The notes beneath the pieces are model-generated. The model worked only from the letters and a program-made list of their open reading frames with translations, made no database searches and had not been told where the DNA came from. The translations under genes and the position numbers were made by a program. Positions 122 to 36,831 of a DNA stretch of 37,739 bases are shown piece after piece. Position 1 is the stretch's first letter; the number at the start of each line of letters is the position of its first letter. Source of the stretch: Candidatus Hydrogenedentota bacterium (GTDB taxonomy: Bacteria; Hydrogenedentota; Hydrogenedentia; Hydrogenedentales; JAEUWI01). The DNA lies in the NCBI GenBank assembly GCA_016182605.1, contig JACPGE010000090.1:1-37739 (forward strand), in the 5' to 3' direction.

Positions 122-184
122 GGGACTGTCCCCCGCACCGCCAGCGCTCACTCCCCCGCAACGGATGGAGTATTGCCGGCCCCG
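122..184 (+). repeat. GGGACTGTCCCC-type dispersed repeat, copy 1
   Basis: The first 24 bases match positions 36658-36681 exactly (GGGACTGTCCCCCGCACCGC plus CAGC), and the similarity continues at a lower level over 63 bases with the same length in both copies, ending in TTGCCGGCC-like sequence. Both copies are intergenic and lie at opposite ends of the window. The start, GGGACtGTCCC, is itself a short palindrome. Its function is unknown. Confidence 0.7.
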
Positions 185-261
185 CCTTGGAAGCACCGCA
201 GAAGCCGCCTTATTTGCAATATCATTTGCCGAAACGGGGGAAAATGTGATAAAAACATGAT

Positions 262-325
262 AGCCCGCATATTTCACCACTTCAGAGCTTTCCGGCAACG
301 AACGCGTGGAGCCCGTGATTTAGCC
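262..325. repeat. Partial copy of the 202-bp palindromic repeat family
   Basis: AGCCCGCATATTTCACCAC at 262-280 and AGCCCGTGATTTAGCC at 310-325 are the two signature blocks of the repeat found complete near 26.7 kb and 32.8 kb. Here they lie only 29 bases apart, so the middle is deleted or replaced. The order corresponds to the reverse complement of the 26.57-kb copy. Confidence 0.7.
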
Positions 326-472
326 GGGATAGCACTGCGAAAGCTGTTTTTTTGGGGCAGGAGGGACGAGATCACGCGTCACGGTGCTCTCCCACGGTCC
401 GAGTGGCCGTGTTCTATACGCAATGACGGGTGGCGGGCAGCCTTTGCGCCCGAAGGGAAATGAGGGTCTCAC

Positions 473-17207: not shown

Positions 17208-17260
17208 TTTATAAATCGACGCGTGGCCTGTTCATCAATTCATCATCAAAGGAAACTACC

Positions 17261-18289
17261 ATGTTAAAGAAGTATCGGGGGTTCACCCTTATCGAACTCT
17301 TGGTCGTGATTGCCATCATCGGCATACTCGCGGCCATTTTACTGCCGGCTTTGGCCCGTGCCCGGGAAGCGGCGCGGCGCTCTTCGTGCCAAAACAATCT
17401 CAAACAGTTCGGAATTATTTTCAAGATGTATTCCAATGAAGCCAAGGGTGAAAAGTTTCCGCCCACGTCGGTAGCCAGTGCCGGTCTCCCGCAGTATTTT
17501 CATGGGTCGGCGCTATATCCCGAGTATTGGACCGACCCGAATCTGGCATTGTGCCCTTCGGACAGCGGTGTCGGCCTTGGCGGCGCGGCGGAACTTCCCT
17601 ATCCAGAGGCGGTCGCCCACGCTGCCCAGACCAAGGCGGCCAATCCGGGCGATGTTGGCATCGCCGCCTGTGCTGATGCCATCACTTCGGTTAGTCTTTC
17701 CTATGTCTACTTTGCCTGGGCCGGGGCAACGGTCTCCCAGCTTACCGATATCATCGGTAGCAAGTATGACCTCGGTTACGCCAACATCGGCAGTTCACAA
17801 CAGTTCAGCGAAAACTCGGGGGGCATGGCTGCGGCCGGTTGCCATTTTGCGGTGAACATATGGCCGATGGAACCCTTCGATGCCGACTTGGACAGTGCGC
17901 CCCGTTTCGAAGTGCACGATCCCGCCCGAGGCAACGGCGGTTTCACCGATGACGATGGTTCTCCGCTGCCGGAGCAGTACTACCGCTTGAGGGAGGGCAT
18001 TGAGCGTTTCTTCATCACCGACATCAACAACGCTTCCGGTTCCGCGAAGGCGCAAAGCACTATCACCATTATGATGGATTCATGGGCAAGTTCAGGCTTC
18101 TTTGCCAGTGTGGGCACGAGTGCCGTCCCGCTCTTTAACCACGTTCCCGGTGGCTCAAACGTGTTGTTTATGGATGGGCATGCGGCATTCCTCAAGTATC
18201 CCTCCGAGTACCCGATCAAGAATTCCGGCGACGGCACCTATGGCGCCAACTTTGACTGGGCCATGTCCCTTGCGGGCGGAACGGGTTGA
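17261..18289 (+). CDS. Type-II-like prepilin with H-X9-DG-type C-terminus, copy 1
   Basis: A 342-residue prepilin. ATG 17261 follows AAAGGA at 7 bases. The leader MLKKYRG is cut before [20 protein letters not shown], with Gly at -1 and Glu at +5, the features used by a PilD-type prepilin peptidase. The hydrophobic helix continues as [24 protein letters not shown], the start of the large-prepilin family seen in Planctomycetes, Lentisphaerae and relatives. The C-terminal [17 protein letters not shown] is the processing-associated H-X9-DG motif, here with ten rather than nine residues between His and Asp. It is closely paralogous to the next gene. It probably forms part of the pilus or pseudopilus that works with the secretin operon. 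It has its own promoter and terminator. Confidence 0.94.
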
Positions 18290-18558: not shown

Positions 18559-18612
18559 TTAGACAGATGGTTCCAGGCGTACTCAATAAACATCATCAAA
18601 GGAAATAAGACC

Positions 18613-19647
18613 ATGCCAAAGAAGTACCGGGGTTTCACCCTCATCGAACTTCTGGTCGTCATTGCCATTATTGGCATACTTGCGGCCATCCTCCTGCCGG
18701 CCTTGGCCCGTGCCCGTGAAGCGGCACGGCGATCCTCGTGCCAGAACAATTTGAAGCAGTTCGGGATCATCTTCAAGATGTACTCGAACGAAGCCAAGGG
18801 AGAAAAATTTCCTCCCACCTCCGTTGCCGTACCCAACAGCGTCATCTCCGCCCAGTATTTCCACGGACCGGCGCTATATCCCGAATATTGGACCGACCCG
18901 AATCTGGCGGTGTGTCCCTCGGACACTACCTCCGGTCTGGGCGGATCGGATATCCCCTATCCGGAAGCCGTCTCGCTTGCGGCACAGACCAAGGCGGCCA
19001 ACCCCGGCGACCCCGCTTTTGCGGCGTGTTCCGACGCGATTACGTCCGCGGGCTTCTCGTATGTGTACTTCGCCTGGGCCGGCGGCACGGTATCCCAGTT
19101 GGCTGACATCATCGGCAGCAAGCTCGCCCTTGGGTACGCCAATTTTGGCGATGCCGAAACCTTCTCCGAAAACTCGAGCGGCATCGCGGATGCCGGCTGC
19201 CATTTCGCCGTCACGGCTTGGCCCTTGGCGCCCTTCGATGGCGATCTGCCCAGCGAAGAACGCGGCGAAATGCACGATCCTGCCCGCGGTAACGCCGGCT
19301 TCACCGACGATGATGGCTCTGCCCTGCCCGAATCCTATTACCGCCTCCGGGAAGGCATCGAGCGCTTCTTCATCACCGACATCAACAATGCAGCCGGTTC
19401 CGCGCAGGCGCAAAGCACCATCGCCATCATGACGGACTCATGGGCCAGCTCGGGCTTCTTTGCCAGCGTGGGCGAGAGCGCCATTCCGCTCTTCAACCAC
19501 GTGCCCGGCGGCTCCAACGTCCTCTACATGGACGGCCACGCATCCTTCCAGAAATACCCGTCGGATTATCCGATTGCAAATTCACCTTCGGGCACCTATG
19601 GCGCCAATTTTGACTACTCCATGTCCCTTGCGGGCGGGGTGGGCTGA
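18613..19647 (+). CDS. Type-II-like prepilin with H-X9-DG-type C-terminus, copy 2
   Basis: A 344-residue paralogue of the preceding gene, differing in only a few of the first 60 residues and drifting in the middle. ATG 18613 follows AAAGGA. The leader is MPKKYRG, cleaved before FTLIELL. The same central features recur ([54 protein letters not shown]), and the end is [19 protein letters not shown], again with ten residues between His and Asp. Third-position changes are frequent while protein changes are few, so the duplication is not recent and both copies seem kept by selection. Two similar but independently promoted pilins suggest alternative or co-assembled subunits. Confidence 0.94.
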
Positions 19648-26506: not shown

Positions 26507-26567
26507 GAATGGCAACTCCCGGATAATGTTGAGCCCGCATTGTAGGGCCCGGCCCACGGGGCTTTCT

Positions 26568-26705
26568 AGCCCGTGATTTAGCCTGCCCAGTGAACGCCAG
26601 CATCGACGTTGCGCTGAGCATATTTCACCACGTTGCCAATCCGAATGCGATCCGGAGATCGCAAAGTGGTGAAATATGCGGGCTAGCCCGGATAAATCAC
26701 GGGCT
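26568..26705. repeat. Palindromic repeat copy A
   Basis: A 138-bp element bounded by 16-base inverted ends, AGCCCGTGATTTAGCC (26568-26583) and GGATAAATCACGGGCT (26690-26705), matching at 15 of 16. Inside is a perfect 14-bp inverted pair GCATATTTCACCAC (26618-26631) and GTGGTGAAATATGC (26666-26679), and inside that a 7-bp hairpin TGCGATC-CGGA-GATCGCA. The nested palindromes would form a long hairpin in DNA or RNA. There is no transposase. The 125 bases 26568-26692 recur at 26776-26900 with one difference. Confidence 0.9.
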
Positions 26706-26891
26706 CCAGCTGACGGAGCCATAACTCTCACTCACACTTGCTGTTGCCCAAACCTTGGATCCGGAAATGACAGACAGCCCGTGATTTAGCCTCCCCAGTG
26801 AACGCCAGCATCGACGTTGCGCTGAGCATATTTCACCACGTTGCCAATCCGAATGCGATCCGGAGATCGCAAAGTGGTGAAATATGCGGGC
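26690..26891. repeat. 202-bp repeat unit (first full copy, includes core copy B)
   Basis: This unit starts with GGATAAATCACGGGCTCC, has a divergent middle of about 70 bases, then AGCCCGTGATTTAGCC (26776) and the palindromic core B to GCGGGC. The unit at 32723-32924 has the same order and exactly the same length of 202 bases, although the middle has diverged. Core B (26776-26900) is 124 of 125 identical to core A. Together these fill most of the 529-base gap between the GDPD and signal peptidase genes. Confidence 0.85.
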
Positions 26892-27035
26892 TAGCCCGGA
26901 GAGTCCGGCCTGGATGGATCGGCCGCAAGGGCGCGGCAAAACAGGAATTCCTACCCGGGCATGAGGTACCATGGGGGCTTTCTTCCCAGAATTTACGCAG
27001 TAGCCGTGTTTCTTTGTGCAGGAATCCACCAGCTT

Positions 27036-28427
27036 ATGGCGAACGAATCACCCCAGAAGTCCTCCAAGCCCGAGACCTCCAAACCGAGCCATCTCGAAAG
27101 TATTGGCGGCATCTTTCTCATGCTGGGCATCACCATTGTGGCTGCCCGCTTCGTCTTCGACGTCGAAACTCCGCCCCAGTTGGTCTTTGGCGGCGTGGGC
27201 CTGACCATCGCCGGCGTGCTCGCCTGGTACTACAGCGGCATGCCCCGCCAGCAGGTCGTGGAGTGGATCAAGAGCGGGCTCTTCGCCGTGCTGCTCGCCC
27301 TGAGCATCCGCTGGGCCGTGGGCGAACCCTACCGCATCCCTTCCGGCAGCATGGAGCCCACGCTGCACGGCGACCCCGGTATCGGCCGCGGCGACCGCGT
27401 ATTTGTGAACAAATGGGTCTACGGACTCCGTTTCCCGTTCACCAAGTGGCGCATCTGGTACGGCCATCCCCCCGAGCGCTGGGACATCGTCGTGTTCAAG
27501 TCGGTGGAGGAAAACGCGCAGCATCCCACGCTGGTGAAGCGCGTGGTGGGGCTGCCGGGCGAGCGCGTCCTCATTCGCGACGGCAAGATTCATATCAACG
27601 GAGAAGCCATACCCTTCCCGGACTATTTCCCCGAGGACCAGTACTACACCGCCTCGCCGGGCATGCGTTTCGGCGTCATTCCGGAGGACCAGTACACCCA
27701 GATCCCCGAGGGCCACTACCTCGTTCTCGGCGACAACAGCGGCAACAGCCGCGATGGCCGTTACTTCGGCTGGCTGCCCAACGAGAACATCGTGGGCCGC
27801 GTGGCCAGCATCTGGTGGCCCCCCACGCGATGGCGCGACTTCACCGGCTTCTCGCATACCCTGTGGTGGCGCGCGCTGGTCACCGTTCTCGGCGTGCTCC
27901 TCGTGGGCCGCATGTTCGCAGGCCGCTCCTGGGTGGTCCTCGCGAATAATGGGAAGGGCCTGGATCACCTCTTCATCAATTTCCTGAAGGTGGGGCTGCG
28001 CATTCCCTTCACGCCCTACTGGCTGGCGCGCTGGGCCGTCTTCAAGCGCGGCGACCTCGTGCTCTATCATTGCCGCGAGGCACAACGCACCGAAGGCGAG
28101 CCGTTGCTAGGCCGTATCGCCGCCCTCAGCGGGGAGCAGGTGGCCCTGGTGGATGGCACGATGCAGGTGAACGGCGAGCCGCTCAACGGCGCCACCTGGC
28201 TGCAGCAGGGAAAGTACGGCTTCGATCATCCCGATGCCGAGTTTGGCAAGTCAGGGAAGAAGGCCAAGACCCAGGTGCCCGACGGGCATTACTTTATGCT
28301 TGCGGAAAACCCGGAAGACACCCACGCGCTCGACAGCCGCGTTATTGGCTTTGTGCCCAAGGCGGATATCGTCGGCACGGCAACGCGTGTGTGGTGGCCG
28401 CCTTCCCGTATCCGTGCGGTGGAGTAA
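27036..28427 (+). CDS. lepB: Signal peptidase I with a second, inactive S26 domain
   Basis: A 463-residue inner-membrane protease that removes signal peptides, nearly twice the minimal length. ATG 27036 gives a cytoplasmic leader and two helices (IFLMLGITIVAARFVFDV and LVFGGVGLTIAGVLAWYY). The first S26 domain has the catalytic IPSGSMEPT (Ser105) and LVKRVVGLPGE (Lys168), and the late LGDNSGNSRDGRYFGWLP. After a membrane-like segment near 270-295 a second S26-like half follows: RIPFTPYW where the Ser box should be, GRIAALSGEQ in place of KRVVGLPGE, and LAENPEDTHALDSRVIGFV in place of the GDNS...SR-FG box. It therefore lacks both catalytic residues. Both halves end in WWPP(T/S)R. The second half is probably regulatory or substrate-binding. 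Confidence 0.92.
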   Translation: MANESPQKSSKPETSKPSHLESIGGIFLMLGITIVAARFVFDVETPPQLVFGGVGLTIAGVLAWYYSGMPRQQVVEWIKSGLFAVLLALSIRWAVGEPYRIPSGSMEPTLHGDPGIGRGDRVFVNKWVYGLRFPFTKWRIWYGHPPERWDIVVFKSVEENAQHPTLVKRVVGLPGERVLIRDGKIHINGEAIPFPDYFPEDQYYTASPGMRFGVIPEDQYTQIPEGHYLVLGDNSGNSRDGRYFGWLPNENIVGRVASIWWPPTRWRDFTGFSHTLWWRALVTVLGVLLVGRMFAGRSWVVLANNGKGLDHLFINFLKVGLRIPFTPYWLARWAVFKRGDLVLYHCREAQRTEGEPLLGRIAALSGEQVALVDGTMQVNGEPLNGATWLQQGKYGFDHPDAEFGKSGKKAKTQVPDGHYFMLAENPEDTHALDSRVIGFVPKADIVGTATRVWWPPSRIRAVE

Positions 28428-28482
28428 CGCAATCTCCGCAAGGCTGAAGTGGCGGCGCCTTCATGGGGCGCAGAGGTAAACC

Positions 28483-29565
28483 GTGTTCGGGATCTATGTT
28501 CACATCCCCTATTGCCGCACCCTGTGCCCCTACTGCGACTTCGTCAAGGAACGCACCGGCGCCAGCGCGCCTGCGCCGTTTGTGGATGCGCTCCTGAAAG
28601 AGATCGATGCCTTTGAAGGCCCGGACGAAGCAGGCTCCATCTTCTTTGGCGGGGGCACGCCGTCGCTGCTGGAGGCCGGGGATCTTTCGCGCATCCTCGA
28701 CGCGCTTGCGCGGCGCTTCCGCATGGCCGGGCCCGAGATCACCACGGAATGCAATCCCGACGACATCACGCCGGATCTTGTGCGTGCCTTCCAGGATTGC
28801 GGCGTGAATCGCATCAGCCTCGGCGTGCAGAGCCTCGACGATCGCGTGTTGCGCTATCTTGGCCGCCGGCACGATGCCGCATCCGCGCTGCGCGCCTGTG
28901 ATCAGGTGGCCGCGGTTTTCGACACGTGGAACCTCGACCTCATCTTCGGCGCACCACCCATCGATGCGTGGCCGGAGACCCTGCGCGGGGTCCGCGCGCT
29001 CGACCCGCCGCACGTGGCCGCCTATGGACTCACCTACGAAGCCGGCACGCCCTTTGAACGCAAAAAGAGCGAAGCGGTGGATGACGACACCGCATTGCGT
29101 CTTTATCAGGACGTGGAAGCGGCCCTGGCGGAATACGCGCACTATGAGATATCCAACTTCGCGAAGCCGGGGCATGAAGCGAAGCACAACCTGGTCTATT
29201 GGCACAACGAGGGCTACGCGGGCTTCGGCACGGGCGCGTATTCGTTCGTCGATGGCATCCGTGCACGCAACCACGTCAAGACGGAAGACTATCTGCGCGC
29301 GCCGGGCGCGAAGTGCGAGTCGCTTGCGCTGACGGTCGAGGAGATCAAAGTGGAGACGCTTATCCAGCATTTCCGGTTGCGTGAAGGCCTGCCGCGCGCA
29401 GGCTATGCGGCGCGTTTTGGCGTGTCGCTCGAAGCGGATTTCGGCCCGGTGCTCGCGGCGCTCCAGGCCCGGGGCTGGCTCGAATCGACCGAGACCAACG
29501 TGCGCCCGACAGCCGAAGGCTTCTATCTCAACAACGAAATCGGTCTCGCCCTGGTGGACGCCTGA
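28483..29565 (+). CDS. hemW: HemW-like radical SAM protein
   Basis: A 360-residue member of the oxygen-independent coproporphyrinogen oxidase-like family, now regarded mostly as heme chaperones (HemW). It starts at GTG 28483 with AGAGGT before it. FGIYVHIPYCRTLCPYCDF carries the cluster cysteines Cys11, Cys15 and Cys18. Further hallmarks are FFGGGTPSLLEAGDLSRIL, TTECNPDDIT, RISLGVQSLDDRVLRYLGR, LDLIFGAPP, YEISNFAKPGHEAKHNLVYW and GFGTGAYSF. The length is normal, and the C-terminal HemW domain is present. It follows the signal peptidase by 55 bases on the same strand, so a shared transcript is possible. Distinguishing HemW from HemN needs more than motifs; the N-terminus favours HemW. Confidence 0.9.
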   Translation: MFGIYVHIPYCRTLCPYCDFVKERTGASAPAPFVDALLKEIDAFEGPDEAGSIFFGGGTPSLLEAGDLSRILDALARRFRMAGPEITTECNPDDITPDLVRAFQDCGVNRISLGVQSLDDRVLRYLGRRHDAASALRACDQVAAVFDTWNLDLIFGAPPIDAWPETLRGVRALDPPHVAAYGLTYEAGTPFERKKSEAVDDDTALRLYQDVEAALAEYAHYEISNFAKPGHEAKHNLVYWHNEGYAGFGTGAYSFVDGIRARNHVKTEDYLRAPGAKCESLALTVEEIKVETLIQHFRLREGLPRAGYAARFGVSLEADFGPVLAALQARGWLESTETNVRPTAEGFYLNNEIGLALVDA

Positions 29566-29572
29566 ATCGAAA

Positions 29573-30175
29573 TCACTTCTCCAGGCGGGCAAACCAGGCG
29601 TGCAGCATCTGCGCGTGGTTCTTGTTCTTGCCCACCGGGCCGCGCACTTCGATCACCTCGTGGATCGTGTCGCGCACATACGGATAGAAGAGAATCTGGC
29701 CGTTCAGGATCAGCGCCAGTTGCTCGCCAATGCCGTACTCCGTCACGTCCGTCATCCGCTCCGCCGCAACCGGGTTCAACTTGAGCTGGAACTGAAACCC
29801 CTTCTCGCCCAGATCTTCATAGACCAGATCCACCAGGTTTTTCCCCGTCAGCAACACCTCGTCCAGGACCGGATAAACTTCCTCCTCCGATTCCGGCGTC
29901 GGCAGGTAGGTCACGGGAATATAGCGCCGGTTCTGCGGCTGGGCGATAAAGCGCACCTCAAAGTCTGTCCTCGTCACAGGCGCCGCTTCGACGTCCACCA
30001 CCGGCGCCGCTTCGGAGTGTTCGCCGGGCGGTTCCGTCTCATGGTCCCGCGAATGGATCTCTGGCGGCGCACTCTCCGGGGGCCGCTTCGTCTCTTCGGC
30101 GCCAGGCTGCCCTGCGAACAGAGACAGTGCGAGCGCCGCCGAGATCAGGGATCGTATGGCCTTGCGGTACTCCAC
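29573..30175 (-). CDS. Exported protein with a SecD P1-head-like domain
   Basis: A 200-residue exported protein. GTG 30175 is used because AGGAAGG lies 6 bases upstream and it yields a signal peptide (YRKAIRSLISAALALSLFAG, cleaved near GAE). An acidic Pro/Glu-rich linker follows to about residue 75. The rest resembles the head of the periplasmic P1 domain of SecD: VLLTGKNLVDLVYEDLGEKG, FQLKLNPVAAERMTDVTEYG, then IGEQLALILNGQILFYPYV and VIEVRGPVG, matching the SecD pattern of IGKQLAIVLDG followed by P-I. No membrane-embedded SecD part is present, so it is a free periplasmic domain. The role is unknown. It is convergent with hemW, seven bases apart. Confidence 0.75.
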   Translation of the reverse strand: MEYRKAIRSLISAALALSLFAGQPGAEETKRPPESAPPEIHSRDHETEPPGEHSEAAPVVDVEAAPVTRTDFEVRFIAQPQNRRYIPVTYLPTPESEEEVYPVLDEVLLTGKNLVDLVYEDLGEKGFQFQLKLNPVAAERMTDVTEYGIGEQLALILNGQILFYPYVRDTIHEVIEVRGPVGKNKNHAQMLHAWFARLEK

Positions 30176-30411
30176 GTGGCGCCTTCCTTTGCGTTGCTGC
30201 TGCGTTCCGGTGATTTCATTGTACACACTTTCCCCGGGTGCGCCGAAAACATTTTCCATGGTGTCTGGCCGCCCCCTTTTCTGGATCGGAAAAGCCGCCA
30301 GCACGTATACTGTGCCGGGCTTGGGCATGGCCGTATGGGCCAGCGTCCATGCGTGTGCATGGGCACATCCGGCCCATTCTTCTTTCGCTCAACACGCTCT
30401 GGAACGCATTC

Positions 30412-31653
30412 ATGACGCATGCAGGCACGCCGGCGCCCGCCACGGGGAAACCACTCAAGATCGTCATCTTCCCCCTGGGATTCGGCCTGGCGCACGTAGG
30501 GCGCACCGTGGTCATCGCACGGGCCCTGCGCGATCTCGGCCACGACGTGGTCTTCGCCGGGGAAGACCCGGACCATCCGCGTTCCAAGCTCGATCACGCG
30601 ATCGCCGCAGGTTTCCGCGTCGTGCGCGCCAAAGAACCGCAACAGCACTGGGCCTGGGACCGATTCCACGATTACGGCATCTGGATTACCCTGTGGGACG
30701 TGCTGCGCACCAGCGAGTGGGCGCCCCTGGATCAGATCGTGGACGACATCATCCGCGTGTGCCACGAAGAAAAGCCGGATCTGATCCTCGGCGACGCGAG
30801 TGTCGGCGTGAGTACGGCGGGCCATATCCTCGGCATACCCGCGGCGGGCGTGCTGAATTCGTACAACGCCTATTTCATCCGCCCGTGGCGTTTCCACTGG
30901 TTCCTGGTCTACTTTCTCGACCGCTTCATCCTCGCGCCCATACGCAAACGGGTCTACGTCAAGTATGGCGTGAAGCCGGTCTGCGCGATCCGGCTCTTGC
31001 AGAACATGCCGTTGCTGTCGCCCGACCTGGAGGCCTTCCACACGCACCATCCCGGTTTCGCACAGTGGCAGGCCATCGGCCCCATCGTCGCGGAACCGCC
31101 CTGCGAACTGCCACCCTGGTTCGACGAACTGAGCGATGGCACGCCCAACATCTACATTACCATGGGCTCCACAGGCTTGCTGGAGGGCCTCCTCCGCCGC
31201 AGCTATGCCCTCTTCGCCACCGCGCCCTACCGCTTCATCGTTACCACCGGCGGACAGGTCTCCGAGGCCTGCATGGCAGAGGCGCCCGCGAACTTCCGCT
31301 TCGCCACCTATGCGCCCGGCTCGAAATTGCTGGAGCATTGCGAGGCCATGGTCTACCACGGCGGCAACGGCAGCATGTACCAGGCCCTGGCCGCGGGCGT
31401 GCCCATGGTGGCCCTGCCCAGCCACCTCGAGCAAAAGGTCTGCACTCTGCTCTTGAAGCAGCATGGCTTCGGCCTGATTGGTTCGGGGCGGCACACCGGC
31501 GCGGCAAAACTGTTGCGCATGATCAACGAAGTTGTGGAAAATCCGGAGTACCGCACGAACGCGCGCCGCTTCTCGCAGGATGTCCTCGACAGCACCGCCG
31601 CGAGCAAAGCCGCAAAAATCCTGATTGACCGCGCGTACCGGGGCAAGGCCTGA
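30412..31653 (+). CDS. GT-B glycosyltransferase (MGT/UDP-glycosyltransferase-like)
   Basis: A 413-residue glycosyltransferase of the GT1/GT28 type. ATG 30412 is chosen as the Met nearest to the conserved IVIFPLGFGLAHVGRTVVIARALRDLGHDVVFAG; an earlier Met at 30349 is possible. The N-domain acceptor half runs to about residue 220. The C-domain donor half starts GTPNIYITMGSTG and ends with the sugar-nucleotide motif VYHGGNGSMYQALAAGVPMVALPSHLEQ. The pattern resembles macrolide and MurG-like transferases that move a hexose to lipid or natural-product acceptors. No membrane helix is clear, so it is probably cytoplasmic or peripheral. The acceptor and donor are not known. Its 5' region runs divergently from the SecD-like gene. 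Confidence 0.88.
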   Translation: MTHAGTPAPATGKPLKIVIFPLGFGLAHVGRTVVIARALRDLGHDVVFAGEDPDHPRSKLDHAIAAGFRVVRAKEPQQHWAWDRFHDYGIWITLWDVLRTSEWAPLDQIVDDIIRVCHEEKPDLILGDASVGVSTAGHILGIPAAGVLNSYNAYFIRPWRFHWFLVYFLDRFILAPIRKRVYVKYGVKPVCAIRLLQNMPLLSPDLEAFHTHHPGFAQWQAIGPIVAEPPCELPPWFDELSDGTPNIYITMGSTGLLEGLLRRSYALFATAPYRFIVTTGGQVSEACMAEAPANFRFATYAPGSKLLEHCEAMVYHGGNGSMYQALAAGVPMVALPSHLEQKVCTLLLKQHGFGLIGSGRHTGAAKLLRMINEVVENPEYRTNARRFSQDVLDSTAASKAAKILIDRAYRGKA

Positions 31654-31713
31654 GCCGCGCGCGCAACGGAGTAAAAATGGATTTATAAGTCTATAGGACG
31701 TAAAGGCTCAAAT

Positions 31714-32613
31714 CTATCCCTTCAGCGCCTGTAGCAATGCGGCCTGAATCTCCGTGTGGCGGGACATTTCCATGTGGCCGATGCCGGTCAATTCCATATT
31801 TTCCGCGCCGTCGAGGCGGCTGCTCAGTTGAGGCGCGATCACAGTGTCGTGCAGGCTGTAGATCGAGGTCAGCCGGGGGTGCTGCCATGTGGAAGCGTTG
31901 AGTCCGGCGAGCCAGGCGTTTCCCGGGCGCATCTGTTTCGCGTTGCGCCAGGGACTCACATGCGCGTGCCGCGTGCCGTGGTGGGGGGAACCGATCGTAA
32001 TGATTTGAACGATGCGGTCGCGATGCGCGTAATGCTGATAACAAGAGCGCGAAACGAGCCCGCCCATGCTGTGCCCCACGAGGATGATGCGTTCGTTTCC
32101 CTCTTCCGCCACGGAGTCGAGCAGGGCTTCAAGCTGGCGTGTCGAGGTGTCGATGCTTGCCCAGAGCGGATCGAGGGTGATGGCGTAGAGGGCATGGGGC
32201 ACGTGTATTGCCACTTCCCGCTGCAGCGGCAGCCAGAAGCCGCTGTTGCAGCAAAAGCCGTGGACAAAGACCACCGCCGTGCCCGAGCTGCCCCCGCGCC
32301 ACTTTCCCGCGGGGCGCCGGGTGAGCGCCGGAATGTGGTAATACGTGTAAAGCGTGACCAGCGCCCACCACTCGCGCAGATAGAGCGCTATGGCGCCGCC
32401 GAAACCCAGTCGCCGATCCGGTGGCACGGGACTGCGCCCGAAAAAGGCGATGGCGAAGAGCAGCGTGTTCAGGGCCGTATAGACCAGCGCCATGCCCGCA
32501 ATCAGGGAGAGGGCCGCCCCCGCAACCGGATGTCCGGCGCGGCCGCCCAGAAAGGCTCCCAGCAGGACCAGGATCATGGCGATCAATACCTGAACCGGCC
32601 CGCGAATCGGCAT
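31714..32613 (-). CDS. Membrane-anchored alpha/beta hydrolase (lipase/PGAP1-like)
   Basis: A 299-residue serine hydrolase. ATG 32613 has GGGGGAG 8 bases upstream, better than the GTG three codons before it. The first 60 residues hold two hydrophobic segments (VQVLIAMILVLLGAFLGG and LIAGMALVYTALNTLLFAIA), so it is anchored in a membrane. The catalytic part begins TAVVFVHGFCCNSGFW (oxyanion HGF), then GHSMGG with nucleophile Ser182, SLHDTVIAP with Asp256 and IGHMEMS with His280. GSPHHGTRHA is typical of triacylglycerol-lipase or esterase members. It probably acts on lipids at the cell envelope. Neighbours give no direct clue. Confidence 0.9.
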   Translation of the reverse strand: MPIRGPVQVLIAMILVLLGAFLGGRAGHPVAGAALSLIAGMALVYTALNTLLFAIAFFGRSPVPPDRRLGFGGAIALYLREWWALVTLYTYYHIPALTRRPAGKWRGGSSGTAVVFVHGFCCNSGFWLPLQREVAIHVPHALYAITLDPLWASIDTSTRQLEALLDSVAEEGNERIILVGHSMGGLVSRSCYQHYAHRDRIVQIITIGSPHHGTRHAHVSPWRNAKQMRPGNAWLAGLNASTWQHPRLTSIYSLHDTVIAPQLSSRLDGAENMELTGIGHMEMSRHTEIQAALLQALKG

Positions 32614-33059
32614 GGCTGACACTCCCCCGTTTATGAAACGGCATGTTCCCCGCAGACCTCTCTATGGTACCTGATCCGGGCCCGGGAGCGAAAATGCGGG
32701 GCATGCCGGGCGGCCCCAATCCGGATAAATCACGGGCTCCAAACAATGTAGTCATAACATACGCCCACTCAAATCGTTGTCCCAACTTCAAGCCCGGGAA
32801 TAACAAACAGCCCGTGATTTAGCCTGCCCGGTGAACGCCAGCACCATCGCCACGCTGAGCATATTTCACCACTATTCCAATCCGAATCTAAACTGGAGGC
32901 CACAGAGTGGTGAAATATGCGGGCCAATTGGCAACCGTATGCATGGCCCTGATAGAATACAGGCACCCTGCATGCCTCGCCGGAGGTATTGTATCCGCCC
33001 ACCTTGGCCCGGCGGCATGTCCCGTTCAACCACGTCTTAGCCTGGAAGGAGTCTCTACC
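32614..33059. other. Intergenic region between the hydrolase and serC
   Basis: 446 bases, mostly occupied by the second full copy of the 202-bp palindromic repeat (32723-32924). The rest holds a possible serC promoter (TTGGCA 32928-32933, 19 bases, TAGAAT 32953-32958, weak by spacing) and the serC ribosome site at 33044-33051. No gene is seen. Confidence 0.5.
32723..32924. repeat. 202-bp palindromic repeat unit (second full copy)
   Basis: GGATAAATCACGGGCTCC (32723-32740), a divergent middle, AGCCCGTGATTTAGCC (32809-32824), GCATATTTCACCAC and GTGGTGAAATATGCGGGC. Same order and length as 26690-26891. The 14-bp inverted pair is conserved, but the inner hairpin of the other copy (TGCGATC-CGGA-GATCGCA) is replaced by non-palindromic sequence of the same length. 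Confidence 0.85.
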
Positions 33060-36657: not shown

Positions 36658-36720
36658 GGGACTGTCCCCCGCACCGCCAGCACGCACAATCCCGCAATCG
36701 ACGGACTTTTGCCGGCCTCG
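36658..36720 (+). repeat. GGGACTGTCCCC-type dispersed repeat, copy 2
   Basis: 63 bases matching 122-184: the first 24 are identical and the rest drifts without a change in length. A shorter GGGGACTGTCC occurs just before it. Confidence 0.7.
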
Positions 36721-36749
36721 TCTCGACTGGGGGAGCGTTTCAACGCTTT

Positions 36750-36831
36750 CTCGTTCCCATGGTCCTCCGTGGGAATGCGTAGTTTACTCGGGAATTTTAT
36801 ATGCATTCCCACGGAGGACCGTGGGAACGAG
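36750..36831. repeat. 29-bp inverted repeat pair with inner hairpins
   Basis: Positions 36750-36778 and 36803-36831 are reverse complements at 28 of 29 bases (arms start CTCGTTCCCA and GCATTCCCAC). Each arm contains its own hairpin, TTCCCACGG-AGGA-CCGTGGGAA in the second arm. Elements of this general kind are dispersed in many bacterial genomes; a degraded copy is at 36554-36583. Confidence 0.85.

What the first reader, a model, noticed from the sequence alone, without database searches (positions are those of the whole stretch)
26568..32924. A 202-bp palindromic repeat family with constant length
Units at 26690-26891 and 32723-32924 have the same order of blocks and exactly 202 bases although about a third of the sequence has diverged, and a partial copy is at 262-325. 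Inverted pairs (14 bp inner, 16 bp outer) are preserved. There is no transposase. Constant length with preserved palindromes points to a constrained structure, such as a MITE, REP-type element or RNA hairpin.
Basis: seen in the sequence. Interest (0 to 1): 0.6.

Follow-up and report, generated by a model that had tools for sequence, protein, structure and literature searches.

The report
IS1380-type MITE with two hairpins
The repeat is a small mobile DNA element without a gene of its own, present in roughly 180 copies in this bacterial genome and almost certainly moved by the enzyme of a larger IS1380-type jumping gene in the same genome; this is a known kind of thing, with an unusual internal layout.

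Summary
The repeats are real and form a large family. The genome has 174 right ends (18-mer, up to 2 mismatches; 0 with the reversed control) and 195 left ends (control 2), so roughly 180 elements; 83 of 97 units read end to end are 203 or 204 bp. The family is a MITE. The element is 5'-CCGGATAAATCACGGG...GTGGTGAAATATGCGGG-3'. It inserts at YTAR, duplicates 4-5 bp (43 of 76 exact 5-bp duplications; shuffled mean 8.7, maximum 18) and has imperfect terminal inverted repeats. The window's 'partial' copy is a complete 64-bp derivative (264-327) with perfect duplications. The likely mobiliser is an IS1380-family IS in the same genome: its right terminal repeat is identical over 17 bp, and its transposase start and end lie at four contig ends. 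Relatives' IS1380 elements have the same kind of ends and targets. Each terminal repeat is echoed inside by an inverted copy, giving two side-by-side hairpins. These inner arms are conserved (96-98%) while the loops are not (70%); loop classes are freely mixed between copies. No compensatory changes support a structured RNA. REP/RAYT is not supported. Why the inner arms are kept is open.

The parts
259..263 (.). Target duplication GATAG (CTATC on the minus strand), left side of the 64-bp copy
   Evidence: Read in sequence; pair confirmed
264..327 (-). 64-bp element with internal deletion: left terminal repeat joined to right terminal repeat, inner arms lost
   Evidence: CTATC|CCGGCTAAATC...GTGGTGAAATATGCGGG|CTATC
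328..332 (.). Target duplication GATAG, right side of the 64-bp copy
26566..26570 (.). Target duplication CTAGC left of the truncated tandem copy
26571..26682 (+). First copy of a tandem pair, 5'-truncated; looks like slippage between two AGCCCG motifs that removed the left terminal repeat and loop
   Evidence: 99% identical to query 87-205 of the full unit; slippage is inferred
26683..26687 (.). CTAGC shared between the two tandem copies
26688..26890 (+). Full element, 203 bp: L+ arm, L loop, L- arm, middle, R- arm, R loop, R+ arm (loop classes L2/M1/R0)
26693..26705 (+). L+ arm TAAATCACGGGCT (left terminal repeat)
26776..26788 (-). L- arm, inner inverted copy of the left terminal repeat
26826..26839 (-). 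R- arm, inner inverted copy of the right terminal repeat
26874..26890 (+). R+ right terminal repeat GTGGTGAAATATGCGGG, identical to the right end of the genome's IS1380 element
26891..26895 (.). Target duplication CTAGC right of the tandem pair
32716..32720 (.). Target duplication CCAAT (left)
32721..32923 (+). Full element, 203 bp (loop classes L1/M0/R2)
32924..32928 (.). Target duplication CCAAT (right)

Best explanation
A non-autonomous transposable element (MITE) of about 203 bp. Shown: terminal inverted repeats of the form CCSGSATAWWTCACSR, insertion at YTAR, a 4-5-bp target duplication, roughly 180 copies, nested and tandem insertions, internally deleted and solo-hairpin derivatives that are themselves flanked by duplications, and IS1380-family elements with matching ends in the same genome and in relatives. 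Inferred: the IS1380 transposase binds the terminal repeats in trans and moves the element by cut-and-paste; a few founders diversified, recombined in the conserved arms and middle (shuffling the loops) and were amplified. The inner inverted arms are probably kept because the transposase recognises them as well, or because they are re-copied from the selected outer arms; the data do not separate these.
For: Copy number: 174 right and 195 left ends. 43/76 full copies have exact 5-bp duplications against a shuffled mean of 8.7 and maximum of 18; the first four positions match in 67-69 of 76. 89% of 122 right ends are followed by NTAN, 76% by YTAR. Internally deleted copies (64, 105, 106, 163, 176 bp) also have YTAR-type flanks, exact duplications in most. 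One element is nested in another's R- arm at C29:38796. IS in the same genome: right ends at contig ends C94 and C126 with transposase C-terminus FTQALRNLENYPLRT*; N-terminus at contig ends C99 and C118, 65% identical over 23 aa to the G038 IS1380 protein; right terminal repeat identical over 17-18 bp. IS1380 (PF13701) elements of relatives G006, G038 and G096 have similar CCCGGA ends next to YTAR. A Phycisphaerales element (L229) has the same ends around an IS1380 transposase start. PMC10045372 states that IS1380 shares 4-bp duplications and CC..GG termini with piggyBac.
Against: No intact IS1380 gene is assembled in this genome (PF13701: none at E<=0.001); the link rests on fragments at contig ends. 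Similarity between IS and MITE stops after the terminal repeat, and the left repeats match in only 12 of 17 positions (and direct comparison), so this IS is not the direct parent. Some copies have mismatched flanks (8 of 76 differ at two or more of five positions). Transposition was not observed.
Confidence: 0.93

Rival explanations
1. REP/BIME-type palindromes mobilised by a RAYT (Y1 transposase).
For: Palindromic, intergenic, many copies; the genome has ten Y1_Tnp (PF01797) genes.
Against: None of the ten Y1 loci (2.2-3.3 kb each) contains an R arm; one weak L hit only. Target duplications and terminal repeats of a DDE-type element are present. A different palindrome (GGGACTGTCCCC) does flank one Y1 gene.
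Confidence: 0.02
2. A conserved structured RNA or regulatory hairpin kept for a host function (terminator, processing site, protein-binding site).
For: Both window copies fold better than shuffles as single-stranded DNA (z -5.3 and -4.0); inner arms conserved.
Against: No compensatory changes in 29 pairs, no Rfam match, copies in either orientation, both full window copies lie between divergently oriented genes, and nested or truncated copies are common. The low fold energy follows from the arms themselves.
Confidence: 0.04
3. A refinement rather than an alternative: the unit is a composite of two once-separate hairpin MITEs (L-hairpin and R-hairpin) that fused and then moved as one.
For: Solo R-hairpin elements with complete ends exist (C101:173099 with CTAGC on both sides) and solo L-hairpin elements occur (C29:46746, C8:8598); L and R loops vary independently.
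Against: Solo hairpins could equally be deletion derivatives of the full unit. Inner ends of the unit lack the terminal CCCG.
Confidence: 0.3

Closest known systems
IS1380-family insertion sequences (ISEcp1, ISPme1 relatives)
   Same: CC..GG termini, 4-5-bp target duplication, matching terminal repeats; transposase of PF13701 in the related elements
   Different: The 203-bp unit has no transposase gene and carries inner inverted copies of both terminal repeats
Bacterial MITEs in general (for example Chunjie, ERIC, TIMEs)
   Same: Short, non-coding, multicopy, terminal inverted repeats, target duplications, moved in trans; mosaic forms are known for TIMEs (PMC4133298)
   Different: Different terminal repeats and mobiliser (Tn3 family for TIMEs); here four arms form two hairpins with interchangeable loops
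piggyBac elements of eukaryotes
   Same: Distantly related transposase, 4-bp duplication and CC..GG ends (PMC10045372); piggyBac ends also carry internal repeats (general knowledge, not tested here)
   Different: Eukaryotic, TTAA target; the internal repeats of piggyBac are arranged differently. An analogy, not membership
IS1380-type MITEs in other genomes of the order (G041, G055) and in Thioalkalivibrio (L196, L199)
   Same: Same terminal core CCCGsATATyTCACC and YTAR flanks
   Different: Different interiors; no four-arm layout seen

Membership tests
MITE | Short, multicopy, no coding capacity | tested here: met
   203-204 bp in 83 of 97 units; about 180 copies
MITE | Terminal inverted repeats | tested here: met
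   CCCGGATAAATCAC at the left and CCCGCATATTTCAC at the right
MITE | Target site duplication | tested here: met
   43/76 exact 5-bp, 25 more with one mismatch; shuffles mean 8.7, maximum 18
MITE | Terminal repeats match those of an autonomous element in the same genome | tested here: met
   17-bp identity with the right end of the IS at C94 and C126; left end 12/17. No intact transposase gene is assembled, so autonomy of that IS is not shown
IS1380-derived | Matching ends flank an IS1380-family (PF13701) transposase | tested here: met
   Relatives G006, G038, G096 and L229
IS1380-derived | IS1380 transposase moves the element | not testable with these tools
   Needs an experiment
REP/RAYT | Palindromes next to a Y1 (RAYT) transposase gene | tested here: not met
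   Ten PF01797 loci, no R arm in any
Structured RNA | Compensatory base changes in the stems | tested here: inconclusive
   0 of 29 pairs, but the arms vary too little for a strong test

The most novel reading that the evidence does not exclude
The inner inverted arms are functional transposase sites, so the element is a four-site MITE whose transposase can choose between outer and inner ends, generating solo-hairpin derivatives and loop shuffling. This would be a bacterial parallel to the internal repeats of piggyBac ends.
Probability: 0.2. Interest if true: 0.5.

Novelty: new member of a known kind. Interest (0 to 1): 0.3.

Why it matters
It explains a conspicuous repeat family of an uncultured bacterium (probably Hydrogenedentota) as IS1380-driven, and many contig breaks in this assembly fall in or beside these elements. 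A search of the held papers for IS1380 together with 'miniature inverted-repeat transposable' found four papers; none appeared from its abstract to describe an IS1380 MITE, and only two of them were opened. The conserved inner arms with exchangeable loops give a natural data set for asking which sequences an IS1380/piggyBac-type transposase needs at its ends.

Tried and rejected
REP/RAYT: Y1 genes found but not near the repeats. RNA family: no Rfam hit; covariation absent. IS1380 gene in the genome by Pfam: nothing, later explained by contig ends holding only the first and last part of the gene. The full unit in 69 relatives: none. Viral contigs with the right-end 17-mer: one hit, with no YTAR flank, taken as chance. 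Many of the 44 genome-contig hits lack a YTAR flank and are probably chance; those with one are L190, L196 (one of its two ends), L199, L204, L208, L217, L220, L229, L232, L233. A strict 5-bp duplication was considered: the fifth base is C on the left in 69/76 but varies on the right, so many duplications are probably 4 bp with the element starting CCC, while TTAGT/TTAGT and CCAAT/CCAAT cases look like true 5-bp duplications.

Full report
Observation. Searching the genome that holds the window (6.76 Mb, 130 contigs) with the right-end 18-mer, up to 2 mismatches, gave 174 matches and 0 for the reversed control. The left-end 17-mer gave 195 against 2. Spacing is almost fixed: L+ (83) L- (50) R- (48 or 49) R+ in both orientations, 30 clusters with exactly this order of arms each way plus tandem and truncated forms. 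Of 97 units defined only by their outer ends, 46 are 203 bp and 37 are 204 bp.

Element boundaries. Lining up the flanks shows sequence running from CCGGATAAATC to ATATGCGGG, flanked on both sides by the same short word. In 76 full copies, 43 have identical 5-bp words and 25 differ at one base; shuffling partners gives a mean of 8.7 and a maximum of 18. The consensus is YTAR followed mostly by C. The fifth position is C on the left in 69 of 76 but more varied on the right, so the duplication is probably 4 bp in many copies and 5 bp in some (TTAGT, CCAAT). In the window: 32721-32923 is flanked by CCAAT; 26688-26890 by CTAGC, shared with a 5'-truncated tandem copy at 26571-26682; and 264-327 (minus strand) is a 64-bp complete element flanked by CTATC, with its interior deleted.

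Mobiliser. Two contigs (C94, C126) end inside another element with the same right terminal repeat, 17-18 bp identical to the MITE, preceded by the end of a reading frame FTQALRNLENYPLRT*. Two others (C99, C118) end inside the left part, with a CCCGGAAATTTCACCGC terminal repeat and an N-terminus MNTECSASQLEFQGFGSRKVQGAFD that matches the IS1380-family protein of relative G038, 65% over 23 aa. The G038 protein ends HAWHNLQHYPMRC, like the C94/C126 frame. The middle of the IS was not found in the assembly, which would explain the negative Pfam search; that the four ends belong to one IS type is inferred. The copy at C99 sits inside a copy of the MITE. In relatives, PF13701 elements have the same kind of end next to YTAR: G006 (two copies), G038, G096. 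A Phycisphaerales MAG carries a short element with these ends around an IS1380 transposase start (L229). The literature gives 4-bp duplications and CC..GG termini for IS1380 (PMC10045372).

Anatomy. Each terminal repeat is repeated inside in inverted orientation without its outermost CCCG, so a single strand can form two adjacent hairpins. Using copies chosen by outer ends only, mean column identity is 0.99 for both outer arms, 0.98 and 0.96 for the inner arms, 0.92 for the middle, and 0.71 and 0.69 for the two loops. Loops also diverge faster than inner arms within most loop classes (0.80-0.96 against 0.94-0.98). There are three L-loop classes and several R-loop classes, and they are mixed: for example L0 occurs with R0 and R1, L2 with R0 and R1. 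Recombination between copies in the shared arms or middle is the simplest reading (inference). Solo R-hairpins with complete ends and duplications (C101:173099, CTAGC on both sides) and solo L-hairpins (C29:46746, C8:8598) also exist.

Why the inner arms are kept. There are no compensatory changes, and the arms vary too little for that to be a strong test. Two readings remain: the transposase uses the inner arms, or the inner arms are re-copied from the selected outer arms. Host function is less likely given both orientations, nesting, tandem copies and, in the window, location between divergently oriented genes (GDPD-like/S26 signal peptidase at 26.6 kb; alpha/beta hydrolase/class-V aminotransferase at 32.8 kb).

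Distribution. The 203-bp unit was not found in 69 relatives, so it looks like a lineage-specific expansion. The same terminal core with other interiors forms other MITE families in the same order (G041, 42 hits; G055) and in Thioalkalivibrio (L196, L199). The order contains a named Hydrogenedentota MAG (L232, apparently the same record as G053's hit), so the host is probably Hydrogenedentota (inference).

Verdict. An IS1380-associated MITE family: ordinary in kind, large in copy number, with a four-arm layout and exchangeable loops that are unusual but not outside what is known of MITEs.

Noticed in passing
window 122-187 and 36658-36723: A second dispersed repeat, GGGACTGTCCCCCGCACCGCC (82% over 66 bp between the two); 17 matches in the genome, two of which (C77:32350 + and C77:33059 -) flank a Y1 transposase gene at C77:32433-32759, so this one is probably a REP/RAYT-type repeat.
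   Followed up: partly
window 36750-36831: A 32-nt hairpin, 94% complementary with an 18-nt loop (CTCGTTCCCATGGTCCTCCGTGGGAATGCGTA).
   Followed up: no
window 17258-17881 and 18610-19239: Apparent tandem gene duplication, 70-88% identical over several blocks at a spacing of about 1,355 bp.
   Followed up: no
L182 (G000:C99:1-300): The IS1380 element is inserted inside a copy of the MITE, at the CTAR of its L- arm.
   Followed up: yes
L045, L049 (G055): Another MITE family with ends CCCGCATATCTCACC and interior CGTCATTGCGAG...GAAGCAATCTC, YTAR flanks.
   Followed up: partly
L196, L199, L217 (Thioalkalivibrio): Elements of roughly 160-180 bp with the same terminal core in a gammaproteobacterium, YTAR at most ends.
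   Followed up: partly
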